DNA from: Verrucomicrobiota bacterium
GTDB lineage: Bacteria; Verrucomicrobiota; Verrucomicrobiia; JAWXBN01
Direction: 5' to 3'
NCBI GenBank assembly: GCA_034440155.1
Contig: JAWXBN010000090.1
Location: 1 to 53,015 of the forward strand
Length of the DNA stretch: 53,015 nucleotides
Shown: in pieces, positions 3,179 to 53,015 of the stretch
How the letters are laid out: every line of letters starts with the position of its first letter
How positions within the stretch are numbered: the stretch's first letter is position 1
The notes under the pieces: generated by a model
Told to the model about the DNA's origin: nothing
Seen by the model: the letters and a program-made list of their open reading frames with translations, nothing else
Database searches by the model: none
Translations under genes and position numbers: made by a program

Positions 3179-3883
3179 ATGCAAATTGAAGTTTTGACCT
3201 TGTTCCCCGGAATCGTCGAGGGTTCGGTGGGTGAAAGCATTATTAAACGCGCACAGGAAAAGGAACTCGTTTCGATTCGTGTGCGGAATTTACGGGATTG
3301 GACCCGTGACCGGCATAAAACAGCCGATGACCGCCCTTACGGGGGTGGTGCAGGGATGGTTCTGAAACCCGAACCGATATTTGAGGCGGTGGACGCCATC
3401 TGTGGGGAGTCGAAGTCAGAATGGCATGTGATTCTGACTTCTCCCGCAGGAAAAGCCCTCACGCAGGAAAAAGCGCGGGAGCTGGCCGGAAGGCCAAAAG
3501 TTCTTTTGATATGCGGTCATTATGAAGGAATCGATGAAAGGGTCAGGACGGCCCTCGTCGACGAGGAAATCTCCATCGGAGATTATATCCTGACGAATGG
3601 TTCTCTGGCGGCCTCGGTGATTATCGACGCCACGGTCCGGCTCATCCCCGGAGTGCTTGGTTGTGAGGAATCCGCCGAGACTGAGTCATTCAACGATTTC
3701 CTTTTGGAGTATCCCCATTACACACGGCCCGAGAATTACCGGGACATACCGGTGCCGGGGGTTCTCCTCTCGGGTAACCACGCGCAAATTGCGCAATGGC
3801 GATACGAGGAGTCCCTGAGACGGACCACCGAAAGGCGACCGGATCTCTTAGAAAAACATTTGCAGTACAAGAAAACCAATTAA
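3179..3883 (+). CDS. trmD: tRNA (guanine-N1)-methyltransferase TrmD
   Basis: 234 residues. TrmD methylates N1 of G37 next to the anticodon using S-adenosylmethionine, which prevents +1 frameshifting. Diagnostic segments are QIEVLTLFPG at the start, RPYGGGAGMVLKPEP, LLICGHYEGIDERV, and the deep-knot SAM-binding region EISIGDYILTNG with RLIPGVLG. The usual TGGE is TNGS here, a mild variation. A GGGAGG ribosome-binding site lies about 10 bases upstream. One copy of the repeated word GCAAATTGC sits at 3784-3792, read as codons for Ala-Gln-Ile-Ala. The gene is followed by rplS, the normal order. Confidence 0.97.
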   Translation: MQIEVLTLFPGIVEGSVGESIIKRAQEKELVSIRVRNLRDWTRDRHKTADDRPYGGGAGMVLKPEPIFEAVDAICGESKSEWHVILTSPAGKALTQEKARELAGRPKVLLICGHYEGIDERVRTALVDEEISIGDYILTNGSLAASVIIDATVRLIPGVLGCEESAETESFNDFLLEYPHYTRPENYRDIPVPGVLLSGNHAQIAQWRYEESLRRTTERRPDLLEKHLQYKKTN

Positions 3884-3910
3884 AAAAAACAAATAGAGTG
3901 GAGAAGACAT

Positions 3911-4279
3911 ATGAGCAGCGCAGTTGACATCATCCGTGCGATCGAAGCCGAACAATTTAAAACTGATCTCGCCCCTTTCAATATAGGGGACACGATCAAA
4001 GTACACACCCGTGTTAAAGAAGGTGAAAAAGCCCGTATCCAGATTTTTGCCGGGCTCGTCATTGCCAAAAAAGGAACCGGGATTAATGCAAATTTCACCG
4101 TCCGCCGTATTTCTTATGGTGAAGGTGTCGAGCGTATCTTCCCCCTCCACTCCCCAAATATCGCCAAGGTCGAAGTGGATAAACATGGAGCCCCACGCCG
4201 CGCCAAACTTTATTACCTCCGCGATCGCCTCGGTAAAGAAGCCCTTCTCGTTAAAGAAAAAGGCGGCCGTAAAAAATAG
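3911..4279 (+). CDS. rplS: 50S ribosomal protein L19
   Basis: 122 residues, normal for L19, which sits at the 30S-50S interface. Recognised by FNIGDTIKVHTRVKEGEKARIQ, the GTGINANFTVRRISYGEGVERIFPLHSP segment (positions about 55-85) and the basic C-terminus with AKLYYLRDRLGKEA. It is the last gene before a strong intrinsic terminator at 4319, so the ffh-rpsP-trmD-rplS transcript probably ends here, although rnhB and yraN, common downstream partners, appear 2.6 kb later. Confidence 0.98.
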   Translation: MSSAVDIIRAIEAEQFKTDLAPFNIGDTIKVHTRVKEGEKARIQIFAGLVIAKKGTGINANFTVRRISYGEGVERIFPLHSPNIAKVEVDKHGAPRRAKLYYLRDRLGKEALLVKEKGGRKK

Positions 4280-4318
4280 TTTTTATTAAGAACCCCTCTC
4301 TAAAGGTTTTCTTTTATA

Positions 4319-5395: not shown

Positions 5396-6033
5396 GCTGG
5401 ATCATTGAAGAAAAAAACTGTCCAATATGAAGAGGAAGTTACTGAGAACTAAAAAATGGAGCCGTTTATGGTAGGAATTATCTCGCAAACTAACTGCCAT
5501 TCCAGTCTGGCCTCGATTTCTATTGCTATTGGTGCGTGCAGACGTATGGCAGTAATAACGATTATGTGAGGCTGAGATTTTAGATTATTTTTTTCAGCAA
5601 ATTGCTCAAGAGGCTATCTTTGGGGAGCATACTCGCTCCCCGAGTGTTGCAGGCATACACCCGCTCCGCCGTTTTTTATCAAATGCCCCCGGAAGGCGTT
5701 CGGGGCCTAAATGGTTCCATCGGGCGGGGACGCCCTCGGATGCACTCGGGGACACATGCTCTCCCCGATCCTCGGCAAGCAGAGCCGCCCGCCCTACCCG
5801 CGTAAAAATCAAAACTTCTTCCTTCGGGAGCAAATTGCTCCCTAGATGGGAACGGGAGCTCTGTCGCCCTACACACTCACTCGTCAGGCTTTTTCTTCGT
5901 GCCCTTTGTGATCTTCGTGGTGAATACCCCCCCCTTTGACGGACTTGCGCTGTGAAACTCATCTGTTTTGGAGGGGGTTTGCCGGGCAACTTGCGCGTTG
6001 ACTTGATGGGGTGAATGTTCTTGAACAGTATTC
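5396..6033. other. Non-coding, palindrome-rich intergenic region
   Basis: About 640 bases with no credible gene; open frames here have low-complexity Arg/Pro-rich translations that match no family. From about 5595 onward it is full of GC-rich inverted repeats: GGGGAGC and GCTCCCC around 5619-5640, TCGGGGA and TCCCCGA around 5748-5772, and a perfect 17-base palindrome at 5826-5842. Two exact copies of GCAAATTGC (5597, 5830) and one variant (5986) fall here. The segment around 5888-5925 reads, on the minus strand, as TTKITKGTKKK, a repeat phrase I associate with dispersed non-coding elements in environmental genomes. The stretch looks like accumulated repeat debris, and it separates the terminated rplS operon from the next gene block. 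Confidence 0.7.
5826..5842. repeat. 17-base perfect palindrome containing the repeated word
   Basis: GGGAGCAAATTGCTCCC is symmetric around its central A (8+1+8 bases) and contains GCAAATTGC at 5830-5838. It is the most symmetric copy of that word in the window and lies in non-coding DNA. It could be a protein-binding site or the tip of a hairpin in the repeat region. Confidence 0.75.
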
Positions 6034-6879: not shown

Positions 6880-7502
6880 TGCCTCCGACACTGGATTTCG
6901 AAAAGGTGGCCAGGTTCAAGGGCTACGTGCAAATTGCGGGAATCGATGAGGCCGGGCGCGGACCGTGGGCGGGACCGGTTTCTGCCGCAGCGGTGATCTT
7001 GCCTAGAGATTTTGCGCACGCGGTCCTGAATGACTCCAAACAACTCACCGAAAAAAAGCGGGAAATAATTTTTGAAGAGTTAATGGCGGACAAACAAATT
7101 CTTTGGGGCATCGGTTTAGCTAGCGCAGAAGAGATCGATTCCCTGAATATCCTCCGTGCCACCCATCTGGCTATGCAACGGGCTGTGGCGGATTTATGCA
7201 GCACCCCCGATTTCCTCCTCATTGATGGACGCCCAGTCAAAGGTTTCGCCATTCCCCAACAAGCCATCGTCAAAGGGGACGCCAAAAGTCTGTCAATCGC
7301 CGCCGCATCGATTCTGGCAAAAGTGACCCGAGACCGTTTGATGCTGGAAATCGGCCGGGAATTCCCTCAATATGGATTTGCAAAACACAAAGGATATGGA
7401 ACAGCCCAACACTCAAAAACCCTTCAAGAATTTGGTCCGTGTCCCGTTCACCGTAAAAGCTTCGCGCCTGTTCGCGCGGCTCTTGCTCAAAGACCCCTCT
7501 GA
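6879..7502 (+). CDS. rnhB: Ribonuclease HII
   Basis: 207 residues. RNase HII cleaves RNA in RNA-DNA hybrids and starts removal of single ribonucleotides from DNA. The catalytic motif AGIDEAGRGPWAGPV (D23, E24) is intact. Further matches are LNDSKQLTEKKRE, FLLIDGRPVKG with the third Asp, SIAAASILAKVTRDR with the fourth, and the C-terminal YGFAKHKGYGTAQH. The start overlaps the upstream stop codon. The last 130 bases overlap the yraN reading frame. In many bacteria rnhB-yraN directly follow trmD-rplS; here about 2.6 kb intervenes. Confidence 0.97.
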   Translation: MPPTLDFEKVARFKGYVQIAGIDEAGRGPWAGPVSAAAVILPRDFAHAVLNDSKQLTEKKREIIFEELMADKQILWGIGLASAEEIDSLNILRATHLAMQRAVADLCSTPDFLLIDGRPVKGFAIPQQAIVKGDAKSLSIAAASILAKVTRDRLMLEIGREFPQYGFAKHKGYGTAQHSKTLQEFGPCPVHRKSFAPVRAALAQRPL

Positions 7503-8705: not shown

Positions 8706-8787
8706 TGGACTCCCCGGAAATCACAAGCGGGGCGAGAATATCTTACGCGTGACAACCGGGGCAAATTGCTTTAGTTAAAAAACCACC

Positions 8788-9666
8788 ATGTTTAACGGTA
8801 CATACACAGCTTTAGTGACCCCCTTCCGGAATGGAAAAATCGACACACAGGCATTTGACAAGCTCATACAAGGGCAAATTGCAGGGGGCGTGGACGGGAT
8901 TGTGCCAGTCGGTACGACCGGTGAATCCCCCACCCTCGATCATGATGAACACATCGAGGTCATCCGATTGGCAAAGGAATACTCACGCGATAAGCTCAAG
9001 GTAATTGCCGGAACTGGAGCAAATTGCACCAAAGAAGCTATCGAGCTGACCCTGGCTGCCGAGGCCCTCGGCATCGACGGCACCTTGCAAGTGGCCCCCT
9101 ATTATAACAAGCCCAGCCAAGAGGGGCTTTACCAGCATTTTGCCGCAATCGCACGTGCGACGAAACTGCCGATCATCCTTTACAGTATTCCCGGACGTTG
9201 CGGGATCGAGATTTCAGTTGAAACCACTCTCCGCCTCGCCACAGACTTTAAAAATGTGGTTTGTATGAAGGAAGCCGGCGGGACACCCGAGCGCGTCAGT
9301 GCCCTGCGCCAAGCGGGACTCCCCGGAAACTTCACCATCCTGAGCGGAGACGATTCACAGACGCTTCCCTTTATGAGCGTCGGTGCTGTCGGTGTCATCA
9401 GCGTGGCCTCAAACCTGATTCCGTTGGAAGTCTCCAAAATGGTTCGGCTTTTTGCCCAAGGCGACCTCGATGCCGCGCGCAGATTGCACGAGCGGCTCTA
9501 CCCGGCATTCAAGGACCTTTTCATCGAGACAAATCCGGTTCCGATCAAGGCGGCCCTTGCGATCAAAGGCCTGATTGCCGAGGAGTACCGTCTGCCATTG
9601 GTCCCCATGTCCGCCGCTAACCGTGCTAAAATGGTGGAATCCCTTAAAAAAGCAGGTGCTTTATGA
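8788..9666 (+). CDS. dapA: 4-hydroxy-tetrahydrodipicolinate synthase
   Basis: 292 residues. DapA condenses pyruvate with aspartate semialdehyde, the first committed step to diaminopimelate and lysine. The Schiff-base lysine is K161 in VVCMKEAGG. GTTGESPTLDHDEH and the pyruvate-site PYYNKPSQEGLYQHF are intact. It lies in a probable operon between dapF and dapB and overlaps dapB by 4 bases (ATGA). Two copies of GCAAATTGC lie inside the gene, in two codon phases (8874 as Gln-Ile-Ala, 9019 as Ala-Asn-Cys), and a third sits just upstream at 8761. I saw no lysine riboswitch in the 82-base gap before the gene. Confidence 0.97.
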   Translation: MFNGTYTALVTPFRNGKIDTQAFDKLIQGQIAGGVDGIVPVGTTGESPTLDHDEHIEVIRLAKEYSRDKLKVIAGTGANCTKEAIELTLAAEALGIDGTLQVAPYYNKPSQEGLYQHFAAIARATKLPIILYSIPGRCGIEISVETTLRLATDFKNVVCMKEAGGTPERVSALRQAGLPGNFTILSGDDSQTLPFMSVGAVGVISVASNLIPLEVSKMVRLFAQGDLDAARRLHERLYPAFKDLFIETNPVPIKAALAIKGLIAEEYRLPLVPMSAANRAKMVESLKKAGAL

Positions 9667-10406
9667 GTGTGACAAATTTAATGATTGTCGGAGCCAAAGG
9701 TCGTATGGGCCAAATGCTCATCCAATGCGCCGGACAGGACAACGAACTCAAAGTCATCAAAGGGCTCGATATCGATAATCCCTCGTTTGATCCAGAGATC
9801 AAACAAGCACAGGCCGTTATTGAGTTCGCCCTCCACGATGCGACCACCCGGACCCTTGAGGCGTGTTTATCAAACAAAGTGCCCTTAGTCATTGGCACGA
9901 CCGGCCACTCGAAAGAGGTCCTCGCGCAAATTGCGGCAGCGGCAAAGCTCATCCCTATCGTTCATGCGAGCAATTATAGCCTAGGAATGAATGCCCTTTT
10001 TTACCTCGTCAAAAGGGCCGCCGAAATCCTCGGTAGCGACTATGATCAAGAAGTCATCGAGATGCATCACCGCATGAAAAAGGATGCCCCCAGTGGTTCA
10101 GCCCTCTCGCTGGCGAAAGTCCTCGCCGAAGTTAAAAAACAAGATCTTGAGAAACTTACCCGGCACGGCCGCGAGGGAATGCCGGGTGAACGTAGCCGCG
10201 ACGAAATCGGAATCCATGCTCTGCGCGGGGGTGACGTCGTCGGTGATCATACCGTCATGTTTGCCGGGATCGGTGAACGTGTGGAGCTCACCCATAAAGC
10301 CTCCAGCCGCGAGACATTCGCTCGTGGGGCTTTGCGTGCCGCGAAATGGGCCACGACCCAGACACCCGGCCTTTACGAAATGTCTGATGTCCTTGGTTTA
10401 AAGTGA
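9663..10406 (+). CDS. dapB: 4-hydroxy-tetrahydrodipicolinate reductase
   Basis: 247 residues, the usual length. DapB uses NAD(P)H to reduce the DapA product. The N-terminal nucleotide-binding loop MIVGAKGRMGQML and the catalytic EMHHRMKKDAPSGSALSLA segment are clear, as is the ASNYSLGMNALF stretch. Translational coupling to dapA is likely from the 4-base overlap. The C-terminus GLYEMSDVLGL matches the family end. Confidence 0.97.
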   Translation: MSVTNLMIVGAKGRMGQMLIQCAGQDNELKVIKGLDIDNPSFDPEIKQAQAVIEFALHDATTRTLEACLSNKVPLVIGTTGHSKEVLAQIAAAAKLIPIVHASNYSLGMNALFYLVKRAAEILGSDYDQEVIEMHHRMKKDAPSGSALSLAKVLAEVKKQDLEKLTRHGREGMPGERSRDEIGIHALRGGDVVGDHTVMFAGIGERVELTHKASSRETFARGALRAAKWATTQTPGLYEMSDVLGLK

Positions 10407-10410: not shown

Positions 10411-10917
10411 ATGATCCCCGTGGGCATCGCTCTTGGTTCAAACGTGGGGGATTCCGCGGGGAATATTGATAAGGCTTTTGAATGGCTCAAAACCCTTTCT
10501 TTGGATGGTACCCTCATCCCCTCGGGCCTCTACTTGTCCACCCCTGTGGAATGTGCACCCGGCACCCCCCTTTTTCTGAATGCTGTCTGCGAAATGAATG
10601 TCTCTGACCAGACCGATCCCCCCGGATTCCTCCGCAAATTGCAACAATACGAAATCCTGTGCGGACGACCCGCGATCCATGGGATCAACCAACCACGGAC
10701 TATCGACCTCGATATCATCTATTTCGGAAATAAACGGAGCAATTTGCGTGAACTGGTAATTCCCCACCCGCGTGCGCACACGAGGCAATTTGTACTGGAA
10801 CCGCTCGCCGAAATCCGGCCCCATCTGGTTCTACCCAGGCAAACAAAAACCGTTACCCGGTTGCTCAATGAATTGTCCGATAGAGACCCGCTCTTCAAAA
10901 AGATGTCCAGCCCATGA
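10411..10917 (+). CDS. folK: Hydroxymethyl-dihydropterin pyrophosphokinase
   Basis: 168 residues. HPPK transfers pyrophosphate from ATP to 6-hydroxymethyl-7,8-dihydropterin in folate synthesis. Hallmarks are VGIALGSNVGDSAGNI at the start, the middle GRPAIHGINQPRTIDLDIIYFG with the catalytic Asp pair, and LVIPHPRAHTRQFVLEPLAEI. The gene begins 4 bases after dapB. GCAAATTGC (10634) and its reverse complement (10739) both occur within about 110 bases of coding sequence. No other folate gene is adjacent. Confidence 0.96.
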   Translation: MIPVGIALGSNVGDSAGNIDKAFEWLKTLSLDGTLIPSGLYLSTPVECAPGTPLFLNAVCEMNVSDQTDPPGFLRKLQQYEILCGRPAIHGINQPRTIDLDIIYFGNKRSNLRELVIPHPRAHTRQFVLEPLAEIRPHLVLPRQTKTVTRLLNELSDRDPLFKKMSSP

Positions 10918-10960: not shown

Positions 10961-11797
10961 GTGAATCAAGGCAGCCTGAAAACTTTTGGAATCGTCGCCG
11001 GCAGCGGGGTTTATCCCCGGTTAATGGCACGTGCGGCCCGCCATAATGGGGTCGAGAAGATAATCGTCGCAGCTTTCGAGAATGAAACCGACCCGCAAAT
11101 TGCTTCGTTTGTCGATGAGGTAATCTGGATGCGTGTGGGACAGCTGGGAAAACTATGCAAATCCTTTAAGAATGCCGGAGTGCAAGAATGTGCCATGGTC
11201 GGGGCTATCGGGCTCAAAAACCTCTTTGACCTCAGGCCGGATTTACGCTGCATCAAAGTCATAGCGAGCCTGAAGGAAAGGAATGCCGCGACACTTTTCG
11301 GGGCGGTCGCGGGTGAACTCGAAAAAGACGGCATCCATGTCGTCGAAGCGACACGTTTCCTCGATGACATGCTCCCGCACGCCGGACATATTGCCGGGCC
11401 CAAGCCCGATAAAAAGCAATTAGCGGATATCGCTTACGGTTCACAAGTCGCCAAACAAATCAGCGCGATGAATATTGGCCAATCGGTGGTTGTCCGCAAC
11501 GGGACAGTGCTTGCAGTCGAAGCCTATGAAAGCACCAGCGACACAATCATCCGGGGGGGTAAAGCAGGCAAAGAAAATGCCATTCTCGTGAAAGTCAGTA
11601 AACCCGGCCATGATTTCCGTTTTGATGTCCCTGTCATCGGGATTAAAACCCTGGAGATCGCCAAAGAGGCCCAAGTCAAAGTCATCGCCGTAGAGGCGAG
11701 AAAAACACTCCTGCTTGAGATCGAAGACCTGAAAGTTTTTGCTGACCGCCACAAAATCACCCTCTACGCTTTTGATCCGGAGCAGATTCCATCATGA
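10961..11797 (+). CDS. lpxI: UDP-2,3-diacylglucosamine pyrophosphatase LpxI
   Basis: 278 residues from a GTG start at 10961 (VNQGSLKTFGIVAGSGVYP). An in-frame ATG at 10772 would extend it backward through folK and is unlikely. LpxI hydrolyses UDP-2,3-diacylglucosamine to lipid X, replacing LpxH in many bacteria. Family segments are GIVAGSG, MVGAIGLKNLFDLRPDL, LEKDGIHVVEATRFLDDML and GQSVVVRNGTVLAVEAYEST, with the PGHDFRFDVPVIG C-terminal region. Its stop overlaps lpxB (ATGA), so two successive lipid A steps are translationally coupled. Confidence 0.94.
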   Translation: MNQGSLKTFGIVAGSGVYPRLMARAARHNGVEKIIVAAFENETDPQIASFVDEVIWMRVGQLGKLCKSFKNAGVQECAMVGAIGLKNLFDLRPDLRCIKVIASLKERNAATLFGAVAGELEKDGIHVVEATRFLDDMLPHAGHIAGPKPDKKQLADIAYGSQVAKQISAMNIGQSVVVRNGTVLAVEAYESTSDTIIRGGKAGKENAILVKVSKPGHDFRFDVPVIGIKTLEIAKEAQVKVIAVEARKTLLLEIEDLKVFADRHKITLYAFDPEQIPS

Positions 11798-23930: not shown

Positions 23931-23967
23931 AAAAACCCGCGCAAATTGCTCTGCGCGGGTTTTTTTA
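23931..23967. terminator. Bidirectional intrinsic terminator carrying the repeated word
   Basis: An 11-bp stem AAACCCGCGCA/TGCGCGGGTTT with an 8-base loop is flanked by A-run and T-run, so it can terminate both convergent genes (fbaB and the fusion gene). The word GCAAATTGC (23941-23949) begins inside the left stem and runs through the loop, which recalls DNA uptake sequences placed in terminators. Confidence 0.92.
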
Positions 23968-26159: not shown

Positions 26160-26295
26160 GGAATATTACCCAGACTATAACACGCCCTATTTTTTTTCAA
26201 ACATTGATTCTGATATTCCTCTAAAACATAAAATCTCAATATTTGATTCTGAAAATAAAATTGACACGGCAATTTTTCTGCCGGATGCTACCACG

Positions 26296-35910: not shown

Positions 35911-35927
35911 ATTTAGTCCTATAATAT

Positions 35928-36950
35928 TCATTTTTTCGTGATATCTATCTCAAACCGTTGATCTTCAGCATTTTGCTTTTGAACACTAACTTTATCAGAT
36001 TGAATGTCAATAACTTTGTATTCGTTTTCCCTAATTTTAAAAACTTCACCTACTTTGACATTATAAGAGTTCTTTTCATCTTTCTGTGCTAAAGGGAAGT
36101 CAATGATGGCCGAAATAATACTTGCTTGTTTACGGTCACCTAATATCAAGGTAATTTCCAAACCATCGTCTCTTTTGACCTTAAGCTCAGAAAGGTCCAC
36201 CATTTCGTTACCTCCCGTTGAGGGATTTATCCGTTTTTCAGCCTTTTTCTCAAAAGCCATAATCGAGTATTCACCATCCGCACCCAGGCTTTTTTCCCCT
36301 AATTTCAAGAATTCGGTCTTCACCTTTCCAGCCTTGTCAGAGCGGTTCACCTGGAATGTTTTGACACCGCCTGTTTCGTTATATTCTTTAAAAAGAATAT
36401 AAAAATCTTCTTTGATATATTCTTTCCCGACAAGCTTTGTAGCCCAATCCGGCCTACTATCGGCTGAAACAGGAGAGGTCTCCTGCTTACCCTCGGTTAC
36501 TTTAGAAAACCAAATATACTCATCGTACGTGGTAAATCCGTCCTTATCCGGATCATCACTACCGACTCCCTCCACCTTCGAAAGGGCATATTGGTCTAAC
36601 CACCAAAACGGGATTCCGTCGATCGTCTCATTTTTTTGATCCACCCACTCGGCTTTTCCTGACTCCGGATTATATTTTATTTGCCCTTTGGGCCCGAAAA
36701 CTTGATGGCCAATCTGGTCATCACGAACCCAAGGTTTTGGATTCTTCAAGTCTTCAAAAATTTTCACAGTCGGAGCCGCATTCCAATTACTGACTCTTCC
36801 CCCCTTTAATTGAGTAGGGTCCATGACTGGTCCGAGATTTTTACTGAACTCCCCGTAACTCATAAAGGTCATGATACAAATCACGATTAGCAGCAGCATG
36901 GCCGCCGCCAATGCGACGGGTGCCTTCTCTGATTTAAAATCAATTTTCAA
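35928..36950 (-). CDS. Amuc_1099-family pilus-like system protein
   Basis: 340 residues. One membrane helix near residues 14-32 (ALAAAMLLLIVICIMTFM) with a short cytoplasmic start, and a large periplasmic part containing a KDGFTTYDEYIWFSK-like stretch (about 140-155) and late beta-rich segments (NVKVGEVFKIRENEYKVIDI). It resembles an inner-membrane alignment protein but has no motif outside its own verrucomicrobial family. The gene overlaps the next upstream one by 4 bases, as all members of this cluster nearly do. Assignment rests on size, topology and position between the Amuc_1100-like and secretin genes. Confidence 0.85.
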   Translation of the reverse strand: MKIDFKSEKAPVALAAAMLLLIVICIMTFMSYGEFSKNLGPVMDPTQLKGGRVSNWNAAPTVKIFEDLKNPKPWVRDDQIGHQVFGPKGQIKYNPESGKAEWVDQKNETIDGIPFWWLDQYALSKVEGVGSDDPDKDGFTTYDEYIWFSKVTEGKQETSPVSADSRPDWATKLVGKEYIKEDFYILFKEYNETGGVKTFQVNRSDKAGKVKTEFLKLGEKSLGADGEYSIMAFEKKAEKRINPSTGGNEMVDLSELKVKRDDGLEITLILGDRKQASIISAIIDFPLAQKDEKNSYNVKVGEVFKIRENEYKVIDIQSDKVSVQKQNAEDQRFEIDITKK

Positions 36951-37846
36951 GGTTGAACCTCGCTTTTAATGGGTTCCGTACCCGGATAATTGAATATTAA
37001 AAGCTCAAAGCGAACTGTGACATTGATTTTATCTAAGCCGAAAATGATCCGAGGTGCAGAACTCTTCTTCTGAGTTTCCTCGATTTCTTCACTGGTCATG
37101 TCCTTTAATGTGGGAATTTTGAGATTTTGGTTCTTGGCGATCACGTCCTTTACCACAAAAAGGTTCCTTGATTTGGCCATCTGATTAACCAACTCTCTCA
37201 GGGAAGTAATATCCCCGACAAATGAAACTTCAAAGGGAAGGCGCATCAGGCCCAGTTCGCTATCCTCAGTAATTTTCAGGTTCATGGAACGGGCGCTCTG
37301 GGTGGGTTTTTCATTGGGTAGTCCGGCCCTGTCTATGGACTTTAATTCTTCAATCCCATCAATATTCAAAACCATCGGGACAAGGGCTTTTAAGGCACCT
37401 AATTGTTTATAAAGGATATCCGTGTTTGAATCATCAGGCAACACGCCCCCGTACATTTCAAAACTAAACCCGTAATCTTTGGGTATTTGGACTTCCGCTG
37501 TTTTTGCCATGGTGGTCATTTCTTGGCGGAATTCGACAATTTCATTACGCAGGTCAATCGGCTTGATATTATCTTTAGGAATTGCCGGATTATTAAAGTA
37601 ATCAAGGAATTGTTGTTTCGCTGAGGCAATCTCCTTTTGGCTATTTTGGACTAATTTAATATTTTCCGCTGATGGAAATGGTTTTGACTCGAGGAGAGGA
37701 TTGAGTTGTCCCCGTTTAATCTCAATATTTCCTTCTGCTTCCTGTAATCCCTCCGATGAAGAAGAGATCAAATATAAACCGATCAACCCGAGCACCAATG
37801 TCACGGATGTGATGACGATAATCGTGATGTTATCTTTGAATTTCAC
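36947..37846 (-). CDS. Amuc_1100-family pilus-like protein
   Basis: 299 residues. An N-terminal membrane helix (IIVITSVTLVLGLIGLYLIS) is followed by a coiled-coil-prone segment (EAEGNIEIKRGQLNPLLE, KLVQNSQKEIASAKQQ) and a periplasmic alpha-beta domain (SMNLKITEDSELGLMRLPF). The plan is that of a PilO-like protein. In Akkermansia the corresponding protein is well known for its effect on host immune signalling, but nothing here shows a host association. It overlaps both neighbours by 4 bases and is therefore almost certainly co-translated with them. Confidence 0.87.
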   Translation of the reverse strand: MKFKDNITIIVITSVTLVLGLIGLYLISSSSEGLQEAEGNIEIKRGQLNPLLESKPFPSAENIKLVQNSQKEIASAKQQFLDYFNNPAIPKDNIKPIDLRNEIVEFRQEMTTMAKTAEVQIPKDYGFSFEMYGGVLPDDSNTDILYKQLGALKALVPMVLNIDGIEELKSIDRAGLPNEKPTQSARSMNLKITEDSELGLMRLPFEVSFVGDITSLRELVNQMAKSRNLFVVKDVIAKNQNLKIPTLKDMTSEEIEETQKKSSAPRIIFGLDKINVTVRFELLIFNYPGTEPIKSEVQP

Positions 37847-39621
37847 TGTTTTAATACTTCACTTTGATTTTGATTCAAAAAAGCCTCGACGGGTTTGATT
37901 CCCACGCGGATCTGGAATGAATAAACAAAATCCCCTTGTTTGGGAGTCTCCAGCTTTACAATCGCCTTATTCACATCAGGAACCACAAAATAAGGCGATT
38001 CCTTCAGCCTTTCGACAAACTGGTACACCACATCGGATTTCCCCTGTCCTATCTCTTTTTCATTGTCGACTTTGCAGAGACCTTCAATCATGTAAACTGT
38101 AGCTGCCAATTGTCTTTCAGCTTCATTCTTGTTTTTGTTCAAAGGCTTCTGTTTCTTGTCATCTTTGGCAGGTTGTGAGCCCAAAGGAATCGTCGCATTA
38201 GTCGGTTCAAATGTCGTCACCCACATATTCTGGTGGATCCTCTCGGTCATATCGCGGGCTAACTGGGAAAAATAATCTTTTTGGGAGATGATCCCAGTGA
38301 TTTTTTTAATCTCATTCTCCATCTCCACCTGTTTTTTTAATTCTTTAGTGATCGTATCCTTGTTTGATTGATACTGATCGACCACAGCATTGATATCTCC
38401 CAGATTCTTCTGGACTCTTTCTTCTTTCCGGTAAATCGCAAACCAAGCGATATAAATGGATAATAAAATCGCTGTCGCCGTGGCAATATACTGGGGCAAC
38501 CGCAGTCGCGCAGTCCTGCGCGAAACGATAGAAGGCGGTTCCAGATTTATCTCCACAGTTCCTTGACCTGATTGCCGGAGCGCCAAGCCGGTTAATTCTG
38601 AGAGGGAATGGACAGAGGAAGAAATATTTTCCTCACTAATCCGGGGTGATACTTTGATATTTTTGAGGGGATTCAGGTACTCCACCTCCACATTGAGTTT
38701 TTCTTTAAAAAACTGTGGCGTGTACGTCATGATACTACTGCCACCACAGAGATATAAACGATCCGCTGATTTTCCCCCTTGTTGTGTGCGGTAGAAATTC
38801 GTTGACCGTGTGATCTCGGCATGGAGACGGGTCATCCCTTGGCGGATTAATTTACTGATCCGGGCGACATCCGGATCTTTGGGATCTTCATAGGCACCCC
38901 CTAACCCCACAAATCCCTTACTCCTTTTGAGTTTCTCGGCCTCTGCGAAAGGAACCTGGAATTCCGTCGCAATACTCTGGGTCAAATTATTCCCCCCTAC
39001 CGGGATGGAACGGCAGAAAAAACGGTCTTTTTCGATAAAAATAAGATTTGTGGTCCTCGCCCCGATATCGACAATCAAACTACAGCCTGATGCCAGACCG
39101 TAACTATTCCGGAATGAATTATAGGTCGCCATCGGGGCCACATCCGTGAGGATGGGTGTCAACCCGATATGGGTCATCATCGCGTAATTTTCCTCAATGA
39201 CATCGCTTTTAACCGCAAAAAGGGCGACTTCATATTCCACACTCCCAGGGGGTGATATAATCTGGTAATCCCAAACAACTTGGTCAATCGGGAAAGGCAC
39301 ATTCTGCTGCGCTTCGTATTTGATGATTTGCTTGAGTTTTTCCGGGCGATCTATGGGTGGAAGCTTGATGAATTTCGGGAAAACAGATTGCCCTGAGATC
39401 GTGTAAGCGATCTTTTTATGTTTGATGTGGCGTTCCTTAAAGATTTTCGCCAAAGAATCCTGGACGAGCGGGAGCGGATTGATTTCTTTTGACGGATCTA
39501 GTTCCAAATCCGTAAAAAAGAAATTCTCAAGGACCAAAATTCCCCCTTTATCTTGGGAAAATTCAGCTACCTTCAGCGTATAAGAGCCTATGTCAATGGC
39601 AACAATCGATGTATTGGACAT
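37843..39621 (-). CDS. Amuc_1101-family PilM-like protein (PilM-PilN fusion plan)
   Basis: 592 residues. Residues 1-350 are an actin-like PilM ATPase domain: IVAIDIGSYTLKVAEFSQD, IDRPEKLKQIIKYEAQQNVPFP and SLIVDIGARTTNLIFIEKD, with RLYLCGGSSIM. A membrane helix follows near 380-398 (YIATATAILLSIYIAWFAIY), then a coiled coil and a periplasmic PilN-like domain. Fusion of a PilM-like domain to a membrane-anchored PilN-like part makes it the inner-membrane platform of the pilus-like machine. No PilB/PilT ATPase or PilC platform gene occurs in the window, so those must be elsewhere. Confidence 0.93.
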   Translation of the reverse strand: MSNTSIVAIDIGSYTLKVAEFSQDKGGILVLENFFFTDLELDPSKEINPLPLVQDSLAKIFKERHIKHKKIAYTISGQSVFPKFIKLPPIDRPEKLKQIIKYEAQQNVPFPIDQVVWDYQIISPPGSVEYEVALFAVKSDVIEENYAMMTHIGLTPILTDVAPMATYNSFRNSYGLASGCSLIVDIGARTTNLIFIEKDRFFCRSIPVGGNNLTQSIATEFQVPFAEAEKLKRSKGFVGLGGAYEDPKDPDVARISKLIRQGMTRLHAEITRSTNFYRTQQGGKSADRLYLCGGSSIMTYTPQFFKEKLNVEVEYLNPLKNIKVSPRISEENISSSVHSLSELTGLALRQSGQGTVEINLEPPSIVSRRTARLRLPQYIATATAILLSIYIAWFAIYRKEERVQKNLGDINAVVDQYQSNKDTITKELKKQVEMENEIKKITGIISQKDYFSQLARDMTERIHQNMWVTTFEPTNATIPLGSQPAKDDKKQKPLNKNKNEAERQLAATVYMIEGLCKVDNEKEIGQGKSDVVYQFVERLKESPYFVVPDVNKAIVKLETPKQGDFVYSFQIRVGIKPVEAFLNQNQSEVLKQ

Positions 39622-40802: not shown

Positions 40803-42248
40803 ATGAATCTCTCCACCCTCCCCCTCCACACACTCCACGAGCAACTTGTTTCCAAGCAAATTGCTCCGCTAGACATTGCCGAATCTTTAATCTCCCGCAC
40901 TGAAGCCGTCGAATCCAAGGTCGGGGCTTTATTGAATTTCGACCCCGAAAAACTCCGGAAGGAAGCCTCTCAAACGACTTTTGACCCCGAAAAACCCCTC
41001 TCTGGTATTCCTGTCACACTTAAAGACAATATTAATGCCTTGGGTGAAACTTGCTCCTGCGGTTCAAAAATCTTGGCTCCATACCGTTCACCCTATGATG
41101 CCACCGTCACACGCAAATTGCGCGAGGCTGGGGCTCTGTTTTTTGGTCGGGCAAATCTTGACGAATTCGCCATGGGCTCCTCCACAGAAAATTCCGCCCT
41201 CAAAATAACCCGTAATCCTTGGGATCTTGAACGTGTTCCGGGTGGATCAAGCGGTGGTTCAGCCGCCTCTGTCGCTGCCGATGAGGCTATTTGTTCACTC
41301 GGCTCTGACACCGGAGGATCGATCCGCCAACCGGCATCTTTGTGTGGCGTAGTCGGCCTGAAACCCACTTATGGACGTGTCTCCCGTTTTGGACTGGTCG
41401 CATTCGCCTCTTCCCTCGATCAAATCGGCCCGATCACTAAAGATGTCCAGGATGCAGCCATCCTCTTAAATGTGATTTCAGGCCATTGCCCGATGGACTC
41501 CACCTCATTAGATACCCCGAAAGAAGATTTTACAGCGGACTTGGGCAAGGGTGTCAAAGGACTCAAGATCGGGCTCCCTAAACAATATTTTATCTCGGGG
41601 ATCGATGCCGAGGTCGAAAAAGCTGTTCGTGACGCGGTCAAACAATATGAATCTCTCGGAGCGGAAATCGTCGAAGTCGACCTACCCCATACGGAATATG
41701 CCGTGGCCACCTACTATATCATCGCCACTGCGGAAGCCTCTTCGAATCTGGCCCGTTTTGACGGGGTGCGTTATGGACTACGCTCTCCTGAGTCTGATGG
41801 GATCATCGATATGTATGGAAAGACCCGTGAATTAGGTTTTGGCCCCGAGGTCAAACGCCGCATTATTTTGGGCACTTATGTCCTGAGTTCAGGATATTAT
41901 GATGCCTACTATCTGCGTGCCCAAAAAGTACGCACACTGATCCGGAAAGATTTTGAGCAAGCCTTTACCCAATGTGATGCCATCATCACCCCGACCTCTC
42001 CGACAGCTGCCTTTAAGGCCGGTGAAAAAACAGAAGACCCCCTTCAAATGTATCTGGCTGATATCTTTACAATCGCGGTGAACCTCGCCGGTAACTGCGG
42101 AATCTCCATTCCTTGCGGATTCACCGGCAGCGGGTTGCCCATTGGCCTACAGTTATTAGCAAACTCGATGGAGGAAAGCAAATTGCTCCGGATCGCCGAT
42201 GCTTACGAGCAATCCACCTCGTGGCACAGACAAAAGCCGAAATTGTAA
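40803..42248 (+). CDS. gatA: Asp-tRNA(Asn)/Glu-tRNA(Gln) amidotransferase subunit A
   Basis: 481 residues. GatA is the amidase that releases ammonia from glutamine for transfer to the tRNA-bound acid. The amidase signature is complete: catalytic Lys in IPVTLKDNINALG, the cis-Ser and nucleophile Ser in PGGSSGGSAASVAADEAI and SDTGGSIRQPASLCGVVGLK. Three copies of GCAAATTGC occur in the gene (40856, 41113, 42178). gatB, usually next, is not in the following 10 kb, so it must be encoded elsewhere. Confidence 0.97.
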   Translation: MNLSTLPLHTLHEQLVSKQIAPLDIAESLISRTEAVESKVGALLNFDPEKLRKEASQTTFDPEKPLSGIPVTLKDNINALGETCSCGSKILAPYRSPYDATVTRKLREAGALFFGRANLDEFAMGSSTENSALKITRNPWDLERVPGGSSGGSAASVAADEAICSLGSDTGGSIRQPASLCGVVGLKPTYGRVSRFGLVAFASSLDQIGPITKDVQDAAILLNVISGHCPMDSTSLDTPKEDFTADLGKGVKGLKIGLPKQYFISGIDAEVEKAVRDAVKQYESLGAEIVEVDLPHTEYAVATYYIIATAEASSNLARFDGVRYGLRSPESDGIIDMYGKTRELGFGPEVKRRIILGTYVLSSGYYDAYYLRAQKVRTLIRKDFEQAFTQCDAIITPTSPTAAFKAGEKTEDPLQMYLADIFTIAVNLAGNCGISIPCGFTGSGLPIGLQLLANSMEESKLLRIADAYEQSTSWHRQKPKL

Positions 42249-42372: not shown

Positions 42373-43464
42373 TTACTTTTTAATCAGTTCAGGATATTGC
42401 TCGGCAATCTTGCGGTATGCCATAAACGCCGCCCGGCGTACTTCGGGGTCGTTATTCTGATTCTTGATGATTTCCTCAAGGAGACTTACAGAATCTTTAT
42501 CCCCATAAAGGCCGATCGCCAAAAGGGCAATATAGCGTACCTCTGGGGCAGGATCACTTTTTGCCATTTCACGGATACGCGGCAGCCCCGGCCCCGATTT
42601 CATCTCCGCCAAGCCGTCCACAGCAAAACGACGGTAATCGGCATCTGGATCTTTCGTGAACTCGATTAAAATAGCTTCGGCTTGGGAATCTTTGAGATTT
42701 GCGAGGGCTTGCGCGGCTGTCATCCGAGTTAATTTATCATCTGACGACAAGGCTTTTTGAAAAACCGCTTTGTTTTCGTTTGAACCTAAAAGCCTCAGCG
42801 AAATCGAGGCATTTTCCCGGACATAAGAATCTTTATCACTTAAAAGCTTGATTAAAGCTTCAGCCGCTTTGGGATCACCAATTTTCCCGAGTGATTGGGC
42901 GGCCTCTCCCCGGACAAACCACGATTCATCGCCCAGGACCTCGATCAATGCATTCACAGCCTGTTTTTCCCTGATTTCACCAAGGGCATTGGCGGCAGCA
43001 CGGCGGACATCTTTGTCCGGATCTTTCAGCAAGGCGACTAATGGTTTGAGACTATTGGGGTCTTTGGCAGAGGAAAGGGCTTTGGCAGCTGCATTACGGA
43101 CGACCGGGTTCTTACTGGCAAGTGCATCGATGAGCACAGGGTCGGAGTCACGGTATTCAGGCTCACCTGTCTGTCCCTTTTTACGGGGTTTTTCGAGCAA
43201 TTTGCGGTAAGCACGGTAAGCCGTGCCTGGATCATTTGCATTCAAGTAGACAATGACTACTTGGCGTTGGAGCTTGAGGTTAGTTGGTTCAGCTTCTAAT
43301 CCGTCAGCCAAAAGGGATAAGGCATCGGAAAATTGTTTTTCCTCTATCAGTTGATTGGTTCTCTCCAATGTCTGGCGCTCTACTTTGGATGAGCAACCAC
43401 CCAAAATGAACATCCCAAAGGTGAGTACGAGCGCAAAAGATAAAAAGTCCAAGTTTCTCTTCAT
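42373..43464 (-). CDS. HEAT-repeat lipoprotein
   Basis: 363 residues. The N-terminus ends in a lipobox LGGC (Cys about 24), so the mature protein is lipid-anchored in the envelope. Residues 33-95 contain a tetratricopeptide-like stretch (QFSDALSLLADGLEAEPTN). The remainder is about seven HEAT-type repeats of 30-32 residues with a D/E-VRRAAANALGEI-like core (e.g. DKDVRRAAANALGEI, ESWFVRGEAAQSLGKI, DSYVRENASISLRLL). Such solenoids bind proteins; no catalytic site is visible. Convergent with gatA, divergent from the C39-like gene 81 bases away. Confidence 0.9.
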   Translation of the reverse strand: MKRNLDFLSFALVLTFGMFILGGCSSKVERQTLERTNQLIEEKQFSDALSLLADGLEAEPTNLKLQRQVVIVYLNANDPGTAYRAYRKLLEKPRKKGQTGEPEYRDSDPVLIDALASKNPVVRNAAAKALSSAKDPNSLKPLVALLKDPDKDVRRAAANALGEIREKQAVNALIEVLGDESWFVRGEAAQSLGKIGDPKAAEALIKLLSDKDSYVRENASISLRLLGSNENKAVFQKALSSDDKLTRMTAAQALANLKDSQAEAILIEFTKDPDADYRRFAVDGLAEMKSGPGLPRIREMAKSDPAPEVRYIALLAIGLYGDKDSVSLLEEIIKNQNNDPEVRRAAFMAYRKIAEQYPELIKK

Positions 43465-45254: not shown

Positions 45255-45255
45255 A

Positions 45256-47192: not shown

Positions 47193-50100
47193 TTACTTCA
47201 CCAGGTCTTGGTTAGTCCGGGTATCACGGGTGGCGATTTTTGCGGGTTCATAATTCAGGTAAGGAGAAAGCCACCTTTCAGCCTCCTCCTGGGAGATTTG
47301 TTTACGCAGGGCGTAGTCGATGACTTGGTCGCGCCCGAGTTTACCCACCGCAAAATAATGGCTTTCGGGATGGGCAAAATATAACCCGCTTACCGAACTA
47401 GCCGGCCACATCGCGCAGCTTTCCGTCAGGGTAATACCCGCATTTTTCTCCACGTCGAGCAGGCTCCAGAGAGTGTTCTTCTCGGTATGGTCCGGACAAG
47501 CGGGATACCCCGGTGCTGGACGGATACCTCGGTATTTCTCCTCGATGAGTTCGTCATTGGAAAGCCCCTCGGTCTTACCGTAACCGAAAAATTCACGGGC
47601 TTTTTTATGCATGAGCTCTGCAAACGCCTCGGCTAAGCGGTCGGCCAAGGCCTTCGCCATGATTGACTGGTAATCGTCGTGGTCTTTCTCGAAACGAGCA
47701 CAGAGTGTATCCAGACCGGCACCCGTCGTGACAGCAAATCCACCCAGATAATCCTTGAGCCCGCTCGCCTTAGGCGCGATAAAATCCGCCAAAGCCTCAT
47801 TGGGTTTGCCTTCACCTTTATTCATCTGCTGACGCAGCGTATGGAGACTCGTGAGCAATTTGCTGCGGGACTCATCGGTATAGACCTCGATGGTCTCTCC
47901 CACACTATTGGCGGGGAAGAACCCGATCACGGCGCGGGCTTGAAGCCATTTATTTGCGATGATTTCCGAGAGCAATTTGCGGGCATCGTCGTAAAGCTCC
48001 CGGGCTTCCTTTCCAATCACTGGATCATTAAAGATTTTCGGGAAACGACCGCGGAGTTCCCACGTATGGAAAAAGGGTGACCAATCGATAAACTCGGCAA
48101 TTTGTGCGAGGTCAAAATCTTCAAACGTACGGATACCGGTGAATTCAGGCCGGGCAATTTGCTCGGGCTCCCAAGCAATTTGCGGGGCGCGCTGGCGGGA
48201 TTCATCCAGAGAAAGGAGGTTGGCTGCAGAACGGCGCAGGGCATGGTCCTCGCGGATTTTGGCCTGCTCGACTTTCAGGTCCGCAGCAAATCGCTCACGG
48301 TTCACCGGATTAAGCAACTGTGAAACCACGGGTACGGAGCGGGAGGCATCGAGGACATGGATGACTTCCTTGCTATAATGCTGGGCGATTTTCACGGCGG
48401 TGTGTGCTTTACTGGTCGTGGCCCCACCGATCAGAAGCGGCAGGGTAAAGCCTTCACGCTCCATCTCGCGGGCGACATGCATCATCTCATCTAGTGAAGG
48501 CGTGATCAGCCCGCTTAACCCGATCACATCGACTTTCTCTTCCCGGGCACGGGCGAGTATTTTATCACAGGCGACCATGACCCCCATGTCGATCACTTCA
48601 TAATTATTACATTGCAGGACGACCCCGACAATATTTTTACCGATATCATGGACGTCACCTTTGACCGTGGCCATTAATACTTTGCCCTGGGCACGGGTGT
48701 CCCCGCTGAGACGTTTTTCTTCTTCCATGTAAGGAATCAGGTAAGCGACGGCTTTTTTCATGACACGCGCACTTTTTACGACTTGAGGTAGGAACATTTT
48801 TCCCTCACCAAAAAGGTCGCCCACTACATTCATCCCGCCCATGAGCGGGCCTTCGATGACCAGAAGTGGTTTCGGATATTTCTGGCGGGCCTCCTCGACA
48901 TCGGCATCGATGAATTCAATAATGCCTTTAATCAAAGCGTGTTTGAGCCTTTCTTCTACTGTCCCCTCACGCCAGCTCATGTCTTCCTTCGACTCGGCTT
49001 TTCCCGTTTTTTTGACGGTTTCAGCAAAATTCACGAGGCGTTCTGTGGCATCGATGCGACGGTTAAGCAGCACATCCTCGACCATTTCCATAAGGTCTTT
49101 GGGCACCTCCTCATACACGGCTAATTGCCCGGCATTCACGATCCCCATATCTAGCCCGGCCTTGATCGCATGGTAAAGGAATGCCGAATGCATCGCCTCG
49201 CGAACGTGGTTATTGCCCCGGAAACTAAATGAAATATTACTGATCCCTCCGCTGACTTTGGCATGGGGCAAGTTGCCCTTGATCCAATGCGTCGCGCGGA
49301 TGAAATCCACCGCATAATTATTATGCTCCTCGATACCCGTGGCCACAGTCAGTACATTGGGATCAAAAATAATGTCTTCCGGCGGGAATCCAACCGTATC
49401 CGTCAGCAGCCTGTATGCGCGTGTGCAAATCTCGACACGGCGCTCAAAGGAATCAGCCTGCCCCTTTTCATCAAAAGCCATGACGACCACCGCCGCCCCA
49501 TAAGCGCGGACGAGGCGTGCCTGATCGATAAATTTCGCTTCGCCCTCTTTCATGCTGATGGAGTTCACAATCGCTTTGCCCTGCGTACACTGGAGCCCTG
49601 CCTCGATCACCGACCATTTGGAGCTGTCGATCATCAGGGGCACACGTGAGATGTGCGGCTCGGAGGCGATGAGATTAAGGAATGTCCGCATCGCGGCTTC
49701 CCCCTCGATCATTCCTTCATCCATATTAATGTCGAGAATCTGGGCGCCATTATCCACTTGCTGCCGGGCGACATCGAGGGCGGCTTCGAATTGATTTTCC
49801 TTGATGAGCTTGGAAAATTTTGGCGAACCCGTCACGTTACAGCGTTCCCCTATATTTACGAAGTTCGTTTCCTTGACGACATTCAGGGGCTCAAGCCCGC
49901 TCAAGGAAAGGATATGATTGGGCTGTGGCCATTGGCGAGGCTTGGATTTCGCAGCGACCTTGGCGATCTCGCGAATGTGATCCGGGGTCGTCCCACAACA
50001 ACCACCGACAATATTCAGCCAGCCGGCCTTGAGCCATTCTTCGATCATGGGAGCCATGGTCTCAGGGGTCTCGGGGAACCCCGTCGCTGACAGGGGATCG

Positions 50101-50936: not shown

Positions 50937-50963
50937 ATCAAGTTATCAAGATATGATGATATG
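50934..50963 (-). promoter_or_regulatory. AT-rich inverted/direct repeats at the metH start
   Basis: CATATCA and TGATATG form a 7-base inverted repeat with 16 bases between, overlapping the metH start codon. Inside are further ATCAAG/CTTGAT-like units. Repeats in this position could bind a repressor of methionine metabolism. The sequence shows only the repeats; no regulator gene is nearby. Confidence 0.35.
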
Positions 50964-51050
50964 ACATTTCGAATTCCTTCGCAACCGTTTTTTTCGTGCA
51001 AGACATATTTTATCTTAAAATAAAATTCCCTTTTAACCGTCGGTCCTTAA

Positions 51051-53015
51051 TCAAACCACAAACTCTTTTATCAAGGGCTTGATACCCGTCAGCTCGATAC
51101 TGCGTGTATCTGGTTGCGAGCCACCGACATAGAGCTTGAAGCGGCCGGGTTCAACAAAACGTTTTCCGGCATCATCAGTCACGAGGAGTTGATCCCGGTC
51201 GATTAAAAGCCGGATTGTCCGGGATTCCCCTGCCTTGAGATGGATTCTTTCGAAAGCGGCAAGCTGGCGGATGGGGGTCGGGTAATTACTTTCACAATCG
51301 CTGACATAGGCTTGGACGACCTCGTCGCCATCGCGCAAACCTGGATTTGAAAGAGTGACTTCCGCCACGATTTCAGGAGTGACGGAGACTTGAAGATGAT
51401 TGTATGTAAATTCCGCATAACTGAGCCCGTAACCGAAAGGGTAAAGTGGATCACCGCGGAAAAAACGATACGTGCGGTTATCCATGGCATAATCGCTGAA
51501 ATCGGGTAAATCGTCTGTGGAACGGTAGAAAGTGAATGGCAACCGGCCCGATGGATTCGTTTCTCCAAAAAGAATCTCGGCAATGGCCTTTCCCCCTTCC
51601 GCACCCGGATACCATCCTTGGAGAATAGCCGGGAGATTCTCATCTGCCCAGACGGGAGCAAGGGCACTGCCGCTCATGAGGACGAGAATGACCGGCTTTC
51701 CTGTGGCGGCGACTTTTTGGATCAAAATATTTTGTACAGCGGGTAATTCAATGGCCGTTTTGTCCCCGGCAGCTTCTGAGTTAAAGGCATCTCCCGCTTC
51801 TCCTTCAATGCGTGGGGTGAGGCCCATGAACATTACGACGACATCGGATCGTCGTGCCGCGATGAGGGCCTCGGAGATACGGTCGTCATCCTCGGCACAA
51901 GCCTCGGTGCGTGCAGAGATGTGTTCACACCCCCGGGCATGCCAGACTCTGCATCCTGACTCGACAGCTTCGAGAATGCCTTCCAGCGGGGTGATCTGAC
52001 GGGTCGGAGTACCATTGTAGTTACCCAGTAAGATATCGCGCAAATCTGCATTTGGTCCGATAACGGCAATCGATTTAATTTTCTTTCGATCCAGCGGGAG
52101 CAAATTGCCCCGGTTACGCAAGAGCACGATACTCTGACGCGCGGCATCGAGGGCGGCCTGACGGTGGGCATCACACTCGATAATTTCATAAGGTGTATCA
52201 CTTAAAGGGGCTGAACCCTCCGGATCGAAAATGCCGAGGCGAAATTTCACCCGGAGCAAATTGCGCAGGACTCCATCAATCTCGGACTCAGTGATGAGAC
52301 CGCGCTCAAAAGCAAGGGTCACCCCCTGCTCCCAATCAGTCAGGCAATCAACTCCGTTTTTGAGTTCCATTGCGGCAGCCTCGGCATAATCAGCACATTT
52401 TTTATGTTCCTTATAAAGTGCCTCTCCTGCCCCGGCATCACTGACGACAGCCCCGTCGAAACCCCATTCCCCACGCAAAATGTCTTTGAGCAGGAAAGTA
52501 TTTGCACTCGCAGGCACTCCATTAATCGCATTATAAGCACTCATGACGGAATTCGCCCCCGCTTCCACACACATTTTGAATGCGGGCAAATAAGTCTCCC
52601 GCATATCACGCATGGAAACAACCGAATCAAAGCTCAGCCGTGTGGCCTCCGGCCCACTATGAATAGCAAAATGTTTCGGAGTCGCACAAACCTTCAGGTG
52701 ATCGGGGTCATCACCTTGGAGACCTTTGACGTAAGCGACTCCGAGGGAGCCGGTCAAAAAAGGGTCTTCACCATAGGTCTCATGGCCGCGGCCCCAGCGT
52801 GGATCCCGGAAAATATTAATATTTGGCGCCCAAAAAGTCAGCCCTTTATAGGTGCCAAAGTCGCCCTGCCTCACGGACTCATGATGACGCGCACGGCCTT
52901 CGAGGGCTATAATCTCTCCCATTTTTAATACCATATACCTGGAAAAAGTCGCTGCCATGGCGATGGCTTGGGGAAATACAGTCGCCGAGCCACTGCGCGC
53001 CAGACCATGGAGGGC
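51051..53015 (-). CDS. Glycoside hydrolase family 3 (beta-glucosidase/xylosidase type), N-terminus outside window
   Basis: At least 654 codons; the frame is open through the window edge (position 53015), where it already reads ALHGLARSGSATVFPQAIAMA, an internal GH3 segment, so the true start lies beyond. The core features are GLTFWAPNINIFRDPRWGRG (two stretches), KHFAIHSGPEATR, the nucleophile Asp in FDGAVVSDAGAGEA, then the C-terminal alpha-beta domain (VVMFMGLTPRIEGEAGD) and a fibronectin-like end (EVVQAYVSDCESNYPTPIRQLAAF in pieces). GH3 enzymes of this plan release glucose or xylose from beta-linked oligosaccharides. Two copies of the repeated word (sense GCAATTTGC) lie at 52100 and 52256. 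Secretion cannot be judged without the N-terminus. Confidence 0.93.
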   Translation of the reverse strand, partial: ALHGLARSGSATVFPQAIAMAATFSRYMVLKMGEIIALEGRARHHESVRQGDFGTYKGLTFWAPNINIFRDPRWGRGHETYGEDPFLTGSLGVAYVKGLQGDDPDHLKVCATPKHFAIHSGPEATRLSFDSVVSMRDMRETYLPAFKMCVEAGANSVMSAYNAINGVPASANTFLLKDILRGEWGFDGAVVSDAGAGEALYKEHKKCADYAEAAAMELKNGVDCLTDWEQGVTLAFERGLITESEIDGVLRNLLRVKFRLGIFDPEGSAPLSDTPYEIIECDAHRQAALDAARQSIVLLRNRGNLLPLDRKKIKSIAVIGPNADLRDILLGNYNGTPTRQITPLEGILEAVESGCRVWHARGCEHISARTEACAEDDDRISEALIAARRSDVVVMFMGLTPRIEGEAGDAFNSEAAGDKTAIELPAVQNILIQKVAATGKPVILVLMSGSALAPVWADENLPAILQGWYPGAEGGKAIAEILFGETNPSGRLPFTFYRSTDDLPDFSDYAMDNRTYRFFRGDPLYPFGYGLSYAEFTYNHLQVSVTPEIVAEVTLSNPGLRDGDEVVQAYVSDCESNYPTPIRQLAAFERIHLKAGESRTIRLLIDRDQLLVTDDAGKRFVEPGRFKLYVGGSQPDTRSIELTGIKPLIKEFVV

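What the first reader, a model, noticed from the sequence alone, without database searches (positions are those of the whole stretch)
3784..52264. A 9-base near-palindrome, GCAAATTGC, is massively over-represented
I count 25 exact copies on either strand in 53 kb, against about 0.4 expected by chance (2 x 53,015 / 4^9). The 21 genic copies use three codon phases and encode different peptides: Gln-Ile-Ala 8 times, a Lys-Leu pair 8 times, Asn-Leu 3 times, Ala-Asn-Cys once, Gln-Phe-Ala once. The Lys/Asn-Leu copies always use TTG for leucine. So the DNA word, not a protein motif, is conserved. Intergenic copies and one in a terminator loop agree. It is comparable in kind to HIP1 (GCGATCGC) of cyanobacteria, or to DNA uptake or methylation words, but I know of no described GCAAWTTGC element in Verrucomicrobiota. 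Function is open: uptake signal, methyltransferase site, nucleoid or repair protein site.
Basis: seen in the sequence. Interest (0 to 1): 0.9.

Follow-up and report, generated by a model that had tools for sequence, protein, structure and literature searches.

The report
Genome-wide iterated 9-base palindrome word
One bacterium of the Verrucomicrobiota repeats the DNA word GCAA-A/T-TTGC about 1,500 times across its whole genome, even at the cost of changing its proteins; it looks like a 'self' mark on DNA, probably for recognising its own DNA during uptake, and nothing like it turned up in some 400 related genomes.

Summary
The window has exactly 25 copies. The whole genome (2.76 Mb) has 1,522, against 7 for the reversed control word, about one per 1.8 kb. 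Codon usage explains less than a tenth: synonymous shuffles give 47 coding copies against 498 observed. The word even inflates its own peptides (Gln-Ile-Ala 3.9-fold). The real element is a larger dyad, [AC]GCAA-W-TTGC[GT] with outer G/C. A one-base centre is obligatory and the half-sites vary independently, as expected for a symmetric DNA-binding protein. It is not promoter-biased, is densest between convergent genes, and is sparse in AT-rich DNA; an 18-kb type III CRISPR contig has none. No other genome sampled in the phylum has it. Four DNA-methyltransferase families are absent, which speaks against the HIP1/methylation reading. ComEC, DprA, a ComEA-like protein and an Akkermansia-type pilus operon are present. 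Best reading: a dyad-symmetric DNA-uptake ('self') sequence, about 0.5; main rival, sites for an unknown chromosome-organising protein. The protein that reads the word is not identified.

The parts
3784..3792 (+). GCAAATTGC, in gene 3179-3883+ (AQIA)
5597..5605 (+). GCAAATTGC, intergenic
5830..5838 (+). GCAAATTGC, intergenic; flanks GGGA..TCCC extend the palindrome (hairpin-like)
6929..6937 (+). GCAAATTGC, in ORF 6879-7502+ (QIA frame); my gene caller left this ORF out
8761..8769 (+). GCAAATTGC, intergenic between co-directional genes
8874..8882 (+). GCAAATTGC, genic (GQIA)
9019..9027 (+). GCAAATTGC, genic (ANC)
9926..9934 (+). GCAAATTGC, genic (AQIA)
10634..10642 (+). GCAAATTGC, genic (RKLQ)
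10739..10747 (-). GCAAATTGC on minus strand, genic (SNLR)
11095..11103 (+). GCAAATTGC, genic (PQIA)
23941..23949 (+). GCAAATTGC between convergent genes
24754..24762 (+). GCAAATTGC, genic (EQFA) in the SHMT fusion gene
25655..25663 (-). GCAAATTGC, genic (RKLR) in the SHMT fusion gene
29402..29410 (+). GCAAATTGC, genic (SKLR)
40856..40864 (+). GCAAATTGC, genic (KQIA), amidase gene
41113..41121 (+). GCAAATTGC, genic (RKLR), amidase gene
42178..42186 (+). GCAAATTGC, genic (SKLL), amidase gene
43197..43205 (-). GCAAATTGC, genic (RKLL)
47855..47863 (-). GCAAATTGC, genic (SKLL), metH
47972..47980 (-). GCAAATTGC, genic (RKLL), metH
48154..48162 (-). GCAAATTGC, genic (EQIA), metH
48175..48183 (-). GCAAATTGC, genic (PQIA), metH; none of 80 homologues carries the word or the peptide
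52100..52108 (+). GCAAATTGC, genic (GNLL), glycosyl hydrolase family 3 gene
52256..52264 (+). GCAAATTGC, genic (RNLL), glycosyl hydrolase family 3 gene
33589..39621 (-). Akkermansia-type pilus operon: PilQ-like secretin (Amuc_1098 family), Amuc_1099-, Amuc_1100- and PilM-like Amuc_1101-family genes. Candidate uptake machinery; itself inside a word-free 11.4-kb stretch
26158..26964 (+). prepilin-like protein (N_methyl, AFTLIELL)

Best explanation
The word is the core of a genome-wide, dyad-symmetric recognition site (consensus about CCnG[A/C]GCAA-W-TTGC[G/T]CnGG) that works as a 'self' mark for DNA uptake, like the DNA uptake sequences of Neisseriaceae and Pasteurellaceae. Shown: the site is genome-wide, strand-neutral, dyad-symmetric with a fixed one-base centre, maintained by a force stronger than mild protein constraint, restricted in these data to this lineage, depleted in AT-rich DNA, and found in a genome with core competence genes but without the four searched DNA-methyltransferase families. 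Inferred: a symmetric or dimeric surface receptor, most likely a minor pilin of the type IV pilus system, prefers DNA fragments bearing the site; incoming conspecific fragments recombine into the chromosome, so alleles with the site spread (a molecular drive) and mutated sites are converted back.
For: Count and density (1,522 in 2.76 Mb) lie in the range of known iterated words (500-2500 per Mb for HIPs, PMC4390886; 1,294 dyad-arranged uptake-sequence occurrences in Simonsiella muelleri, with dimer-based recognition suggested there, PMC3630211). Site distribution: genic 0.53 and intergenic 0.60 per kb, twofold enriched between convergent genes, slightly depleted around start codons. It is sparse in AT-rich DNA (rho 0.42 with regional GC, against -0.01 for same-composition control words). 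Only 2 of 120 pieces of 5 kb or more lack it; the larger is a type III-B (Cmr) CRISPR contig. It is installed at variable protein positions: none of 80 MetH homologues carries the word at any of the 4 sites. ComEC, DprA, a 94-aa ComEA-like HHH_3 protein, a PilQ/PilM-type operon and prepilins are present. Methyltransferases were searched and not found.
Against: No uptake experiment and no identified receptor. The pilus and competence genes found are common in bacteria without uptake specificity; I did not compare their presence across relatives. Most known uptake words are asymmetric. The pilus operon itself lies in a word-free stretch. No relative close enough to watch gain and loss was held.
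Confidence: 0.5

Rival explanations
1. The word is the binding site of an abundant, sequence-specific, dimeric nucleoid or chromosome-organising protein. Sites are kept by selection for protein loading along the chromosome.
For: Dyad symmetry with independent half-sites and graded outer preferences looks like a protein-dimer site. Enrichment between convergent genes and even use of genic and intergenic DNA would fit.
Against: Selection on about 1,500 individual sites strong enough to change protein residues is hard to sustain without a drive. Spacing is clustered rather than regular (5-kb bins, variance/mean 1.48; gaps above 10 kb). From general knowledge, sequence-specific organisers such as ParB, Noc, SlmA and MatP use tens of sites.
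Confidence: 0.27
2. A HIP-like word created by methylation-directed mismatch repair, as Elhai proposed for cyanobacteria.
For: Similar density, palindromy, and one-off variants concentrated at the terminal bases, as in HIP1 (PMC4390886). The word lies inside the CRISPR repeat of this genome, as a HIP1-like site does in Synechocystis (PMC6604393).
Against: No match to the N6_N4_Mtase, C5 DNA_methylase, N6_Mtase or MethyltransfD12 families in the 97% complete assembly, though each rings in 4-13 of the 14 control genomes. A motif scan of the 2.1 Mb in hand suggested none either (those candidates were not profile-checked).
Confidence: 0.08
3. A transcription-factor regulon or transcription terminator element.
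For: Twofold enrichment between convergent genes; a few copies sit in longer hairpins (window 5830).
Against: About 78% of copies are inside genes; divergent intergenic density (0.53 per kb) equals the genic density and sites are slightly depleted near starts. Only 2 of 175 intergenic sites extend to a stem of 8 or more added pairs.
Confidence: 0.03
4. Codon or peptide usage, a dispersed repeat family, or an assembly artefact.
For: One repeat family (35 linked contexts) and a CRISPR array carry copies.
Against: 996 independent contexts among 1,144 sites; 10-fold above synonymous shuffles; only 2 of 120 pieces of 5 kb or more lack it; reversed control word 7 in the genome.
Confidence: 0.01

Closest known systems
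DNA uptake sequences (DUS) of Neisseriaceae, including the dyad-arranged simDUS/kingDUS of Simonsiella
   Same: Hundreds to thousands of short exact copies, lineage-specific, genic and intergenic, enriched in native over foreign DNA, in a genome with ComEC, DprA and type IV pilus genes; dyad arrangement reported in Simonsiella and Kingella
   Different: Different sequence and phylum; a 9-base core with one-base centre instead of overlapping 10-12-mers; no ComP homologue identified; uptake untested
Uptake signal sequence (USS) of Pasteurellaceae
   Same: 9-base core at similar density, intragenic and intergenic
   Different: USS is stated not to be palindromic (PMC12616744); different sequence and phylum
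HIP1 and alternate HIPs of cyanobacteria
   Same: Palindromic, one per 1-2 kb, one-off variants biased to the end bases, a copy in the CRISPR repeat
   Different: The HIP association with a matching methyltransferase was tested and not met here; 4+1+4 odd dyad instead of even palindrome; other phylum

Membership tests
DNA uptake sequence (DUS/USS) | Extreme genome-wide over-representation of a short exact word | tested here: met
   1,522 vs 7 control; 676 vs 13.8 Markov
DNA uptake sequence (DUS/USS) | Preferential uptake or transformation of DNA carrying the word | not testable with these tools
   Needs a competent culture
DNA uptake sequence (DUS/USS) | Competence machinery (ComEC, DprA, ComEA, type IV pilus secretin and pilins) | tested here: met
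   core set only, HHH_3 match is ComEA-like by length and domain
DNA uptake sequence (DUS/USS) | Specific receptor (ComP-like minor pilin) | not tested
   Prepilins listed, none linked to the word
DNA uptake sequence (DUS/USS) | Accumulation in native DNA, scarcity in foreign islands | tested here: met
   GC correlation with controls; Cmr CRISPR contig has none. Core genome not defined by orthology
HIP1/HIP | Highly iterated palindrome at 500-2500 per Mb | tested here: met
   551 per Mb; near-palindrome with W centre
HIP1/HIP | Cognate DNA methyltransferase in the genome | tested here: not met
   Four families absent
Transcription-factor regulon | Sites concentrated upstream of genes | tested here: not met
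Chi/KOPS-type polar motifs | Asymmetric, strand-polar motif | tested here: not met
   Dyad symmetric; 766 vs 756 strands; neighbours share orientation 323/601, a slight excess possibly due to gene strand

The most novel reading that the evidence does not exclude
A symmetric 'self' word of a new type: a genome-wide, methylation-independent dyad site read by an unknown symmetric receptor in Verrucomicrobiota, which evolved independently of Neisseriaceae, Pasteurellaceae and cyanobacteria and is strong enough to rewrite protein sequences.
Probability: 0.5. Interest if true: 0.88.

Novelty: new variant of a known kind. Interest (0 to 1): 0.78.

Why it matters
Sequence-specific DNA uptake is known to me only from two proteobacterial families, and HIP1 has lacked an agreed function for decades. 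A third, independent case in another phylum, with a symmetric site and no methyltransferase found, would separate the uptake/drive explanation from the methylation explanation. It would also show how strongly such a word can bend a proteome: Gln-Ile-Ala is nearly four times too common here. It offers a ready tag for assigning contigs, phages and plasmids to this lineage.

Tried and rejected
Literature searches for the exact word and its degenerate forms found no described element (open-licence papers only). The one scan of named genomes used MetH, which is mosaic, so it gave no close relative; none of the 80 loci shows the word at density, and no comparable palindromic word of their own stood out in 8-24 kb pieces. 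Paralogue comparison was dominated by repeat families. An apparent asymmetry among one-mismatch words weakened after masking exact sites: the strongest enriched variants are RCAANTTGY, though GCAAATCGC and GCAAAATGC stay about 4-fold enriched, unexplained.

Full report
Observation. The window holds exactly 25 copies of GCAAATTGC on the two strands; shuffled sequence gives 1.0 on average and never more than 4. The window lies in a 2.76-Mb, 132-contig, 97% complete genome, which holds 1,522 copies against 7 of the reversed word.

Is it codon or composition? No. In 1.257 Mb, 676 copies stand against 13.8 expected (order-2 Markov) or 15.5 (order-4). Synonymous shuffling inside each gene gives 27 and 20 copies of the two coding-strand forms against 307 and 191 observed. 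The shuffle is conservative, because the word has also changed the proteins: Gln-Ile-Ala is 3.9-fold, Gln-Phe-Ala 3.3-fold and Ala-Asn-Cys 3.0-fold above composition, while most control tripeptides stay near 1 (Gln-Val-Ala and Gln-Met-Ala reach 1.5). In metH, which carries four copies, none of 80 homologues has the word, and the peptides sit at variable positions or depart from the common residue (for example Ala where 51 of 80 have Asp). The 1,144 sites read in 2.10 Mb fall into 996 independent contexts, so dispersed repeats are not the cause.

Anatomy. The centre may be A or T, and G/C is still about 14-fold enriched. Removing the centre (GCAATTGC) leaves 18 against 35 expected, and widening it leaves 1 against 5. 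Flanks are symmetric: [A/C] then G outward on one side, [G/T] then C on the other, with C-rich and G-rich positions a few bases further out, also at intergenic sites alone. Where one half is ACAA instead of GCAA, only that half's flank changes, to A-rich, while the other half keeps its own preference. Perfect palindromes rarely extend further, so this is not a hairpin. Independent half-sites around a fixed centre are what a symmetric, probably dimeric, DNA-binding protein would produce; that step is inference.

Distribution. Density is 0.53 per kb in genes and 0.60 between genes. It is 1.18 per kb between convergent genes, 0.53 between divergent genes, and slightly low around starts. It rises with regional GC (rho 0.42) although the word is AT-leaning; same-composition control words give -0.01. 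Two of 120 pieces of 5 kb or more lack it; the larger, an 18.4-kb contig, encodes type III-B (Cmr) CRISPR proteins. Gene calls are from my own simple caller (80% coding), so these densities are approximate.

Who has it. None of 140 same-class genomes or 387 genomes drawn across the phylum (the sets overlap, and one search used the longer form GCAAWTTGCKC) comes near it: the highest for the 9-mer is 165 copies in 4.3 Mb. Fifteen genomes behind the MetH loci show background counts too. No genome of the same order or family was held, so the age of the word and its gains and losses are unknown. The Verrucomicrobiota label is supported by the Amuc_1098-1101-type operon at 33589-39621.

Machinery. 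ComEC, DprA, a 94-aa ComEA-like helix-hairpin-helix protein, a PilQ-like secretin and PilM-like protein in the window and several prepilins are present. Four DNA-methyltransferase families gave no match, though each is found in the control genomes. Other methyltransferase families were not searched by profile, and 3% of the genome is missing.

Mechanism. Known words of this density are DNA uptake sequences and HIPs. The HIP model ties each word to a cognate methyltransferase (PMC4390886); that test is not met here. The regulon model fails on position. Two readings remain: an uptake mark and sites of a chromosome-organising protein. I favour uptake, because transformation-driven conversion can maintain some 1,500 exact sites even where they alter protein residues, because the core competence genes are there, because foreign-looking DNA lacks the word, and because dyad-arranged uptake sequences with suggested dimer recognition are on record in Simonsiella (PMC3630211). 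Uptake was not tested and no receptor is identified, so confidence is about one half.

A parallel worth noting: this genome's CRISPR repeat contains the word, as the Synechocystis CRISPR1 repeat contains seven of eight bases of HIP1 (PMC6604393). With the word this frequent, chance alone gives roughly 2% for a 37-bp repeat.

Noticed in passing
L222 (G000:C89) 4253-4901: CRISPR array with 37-bp repeat GTCTCCAATGCCTTTCGGCAAATTGCTTCGGGTCTTC that contains the word; the two leftmost repeats carry a roughly 53-bp insert inside the word (GCAA^ATTGC).
   Followed up: partly
L038 (G000:C27) 1-18387: Type III-B (Cmr2/Cas10, Cmr3, RAMP) CRISPR locus on a contig with no copy of the word.
   Followed up: partly
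L047 ~230-480 and ~585-830; L173 5600-5860; L012, L026, L057, L175: Repeat family with two copies of the word about 97 bp apart next to a MITE-like element with inverted ends GTGTAGGGCGA...TCGCCCTACAC.
   Followed up: partly
window 23991-26159 (-): Triple fusion in one 722-aa frame: low-molecular-weight phosphotyrosine phosphatase, RpiB/LacAB isomerase, serine hydroxymethyltransferase.
   Followed up: no
window 33589-39621 (-): Amuc_1098/1099/1100/1101-type operon; the 1100-like protein is below its curated cut-off, so a divergent relative of the Akkermansia Amuc_1100 protein.
   Followed up: no
L023 12059-13378 (-): Two nearly identical prepilin genes side by side.
   Followed up: no
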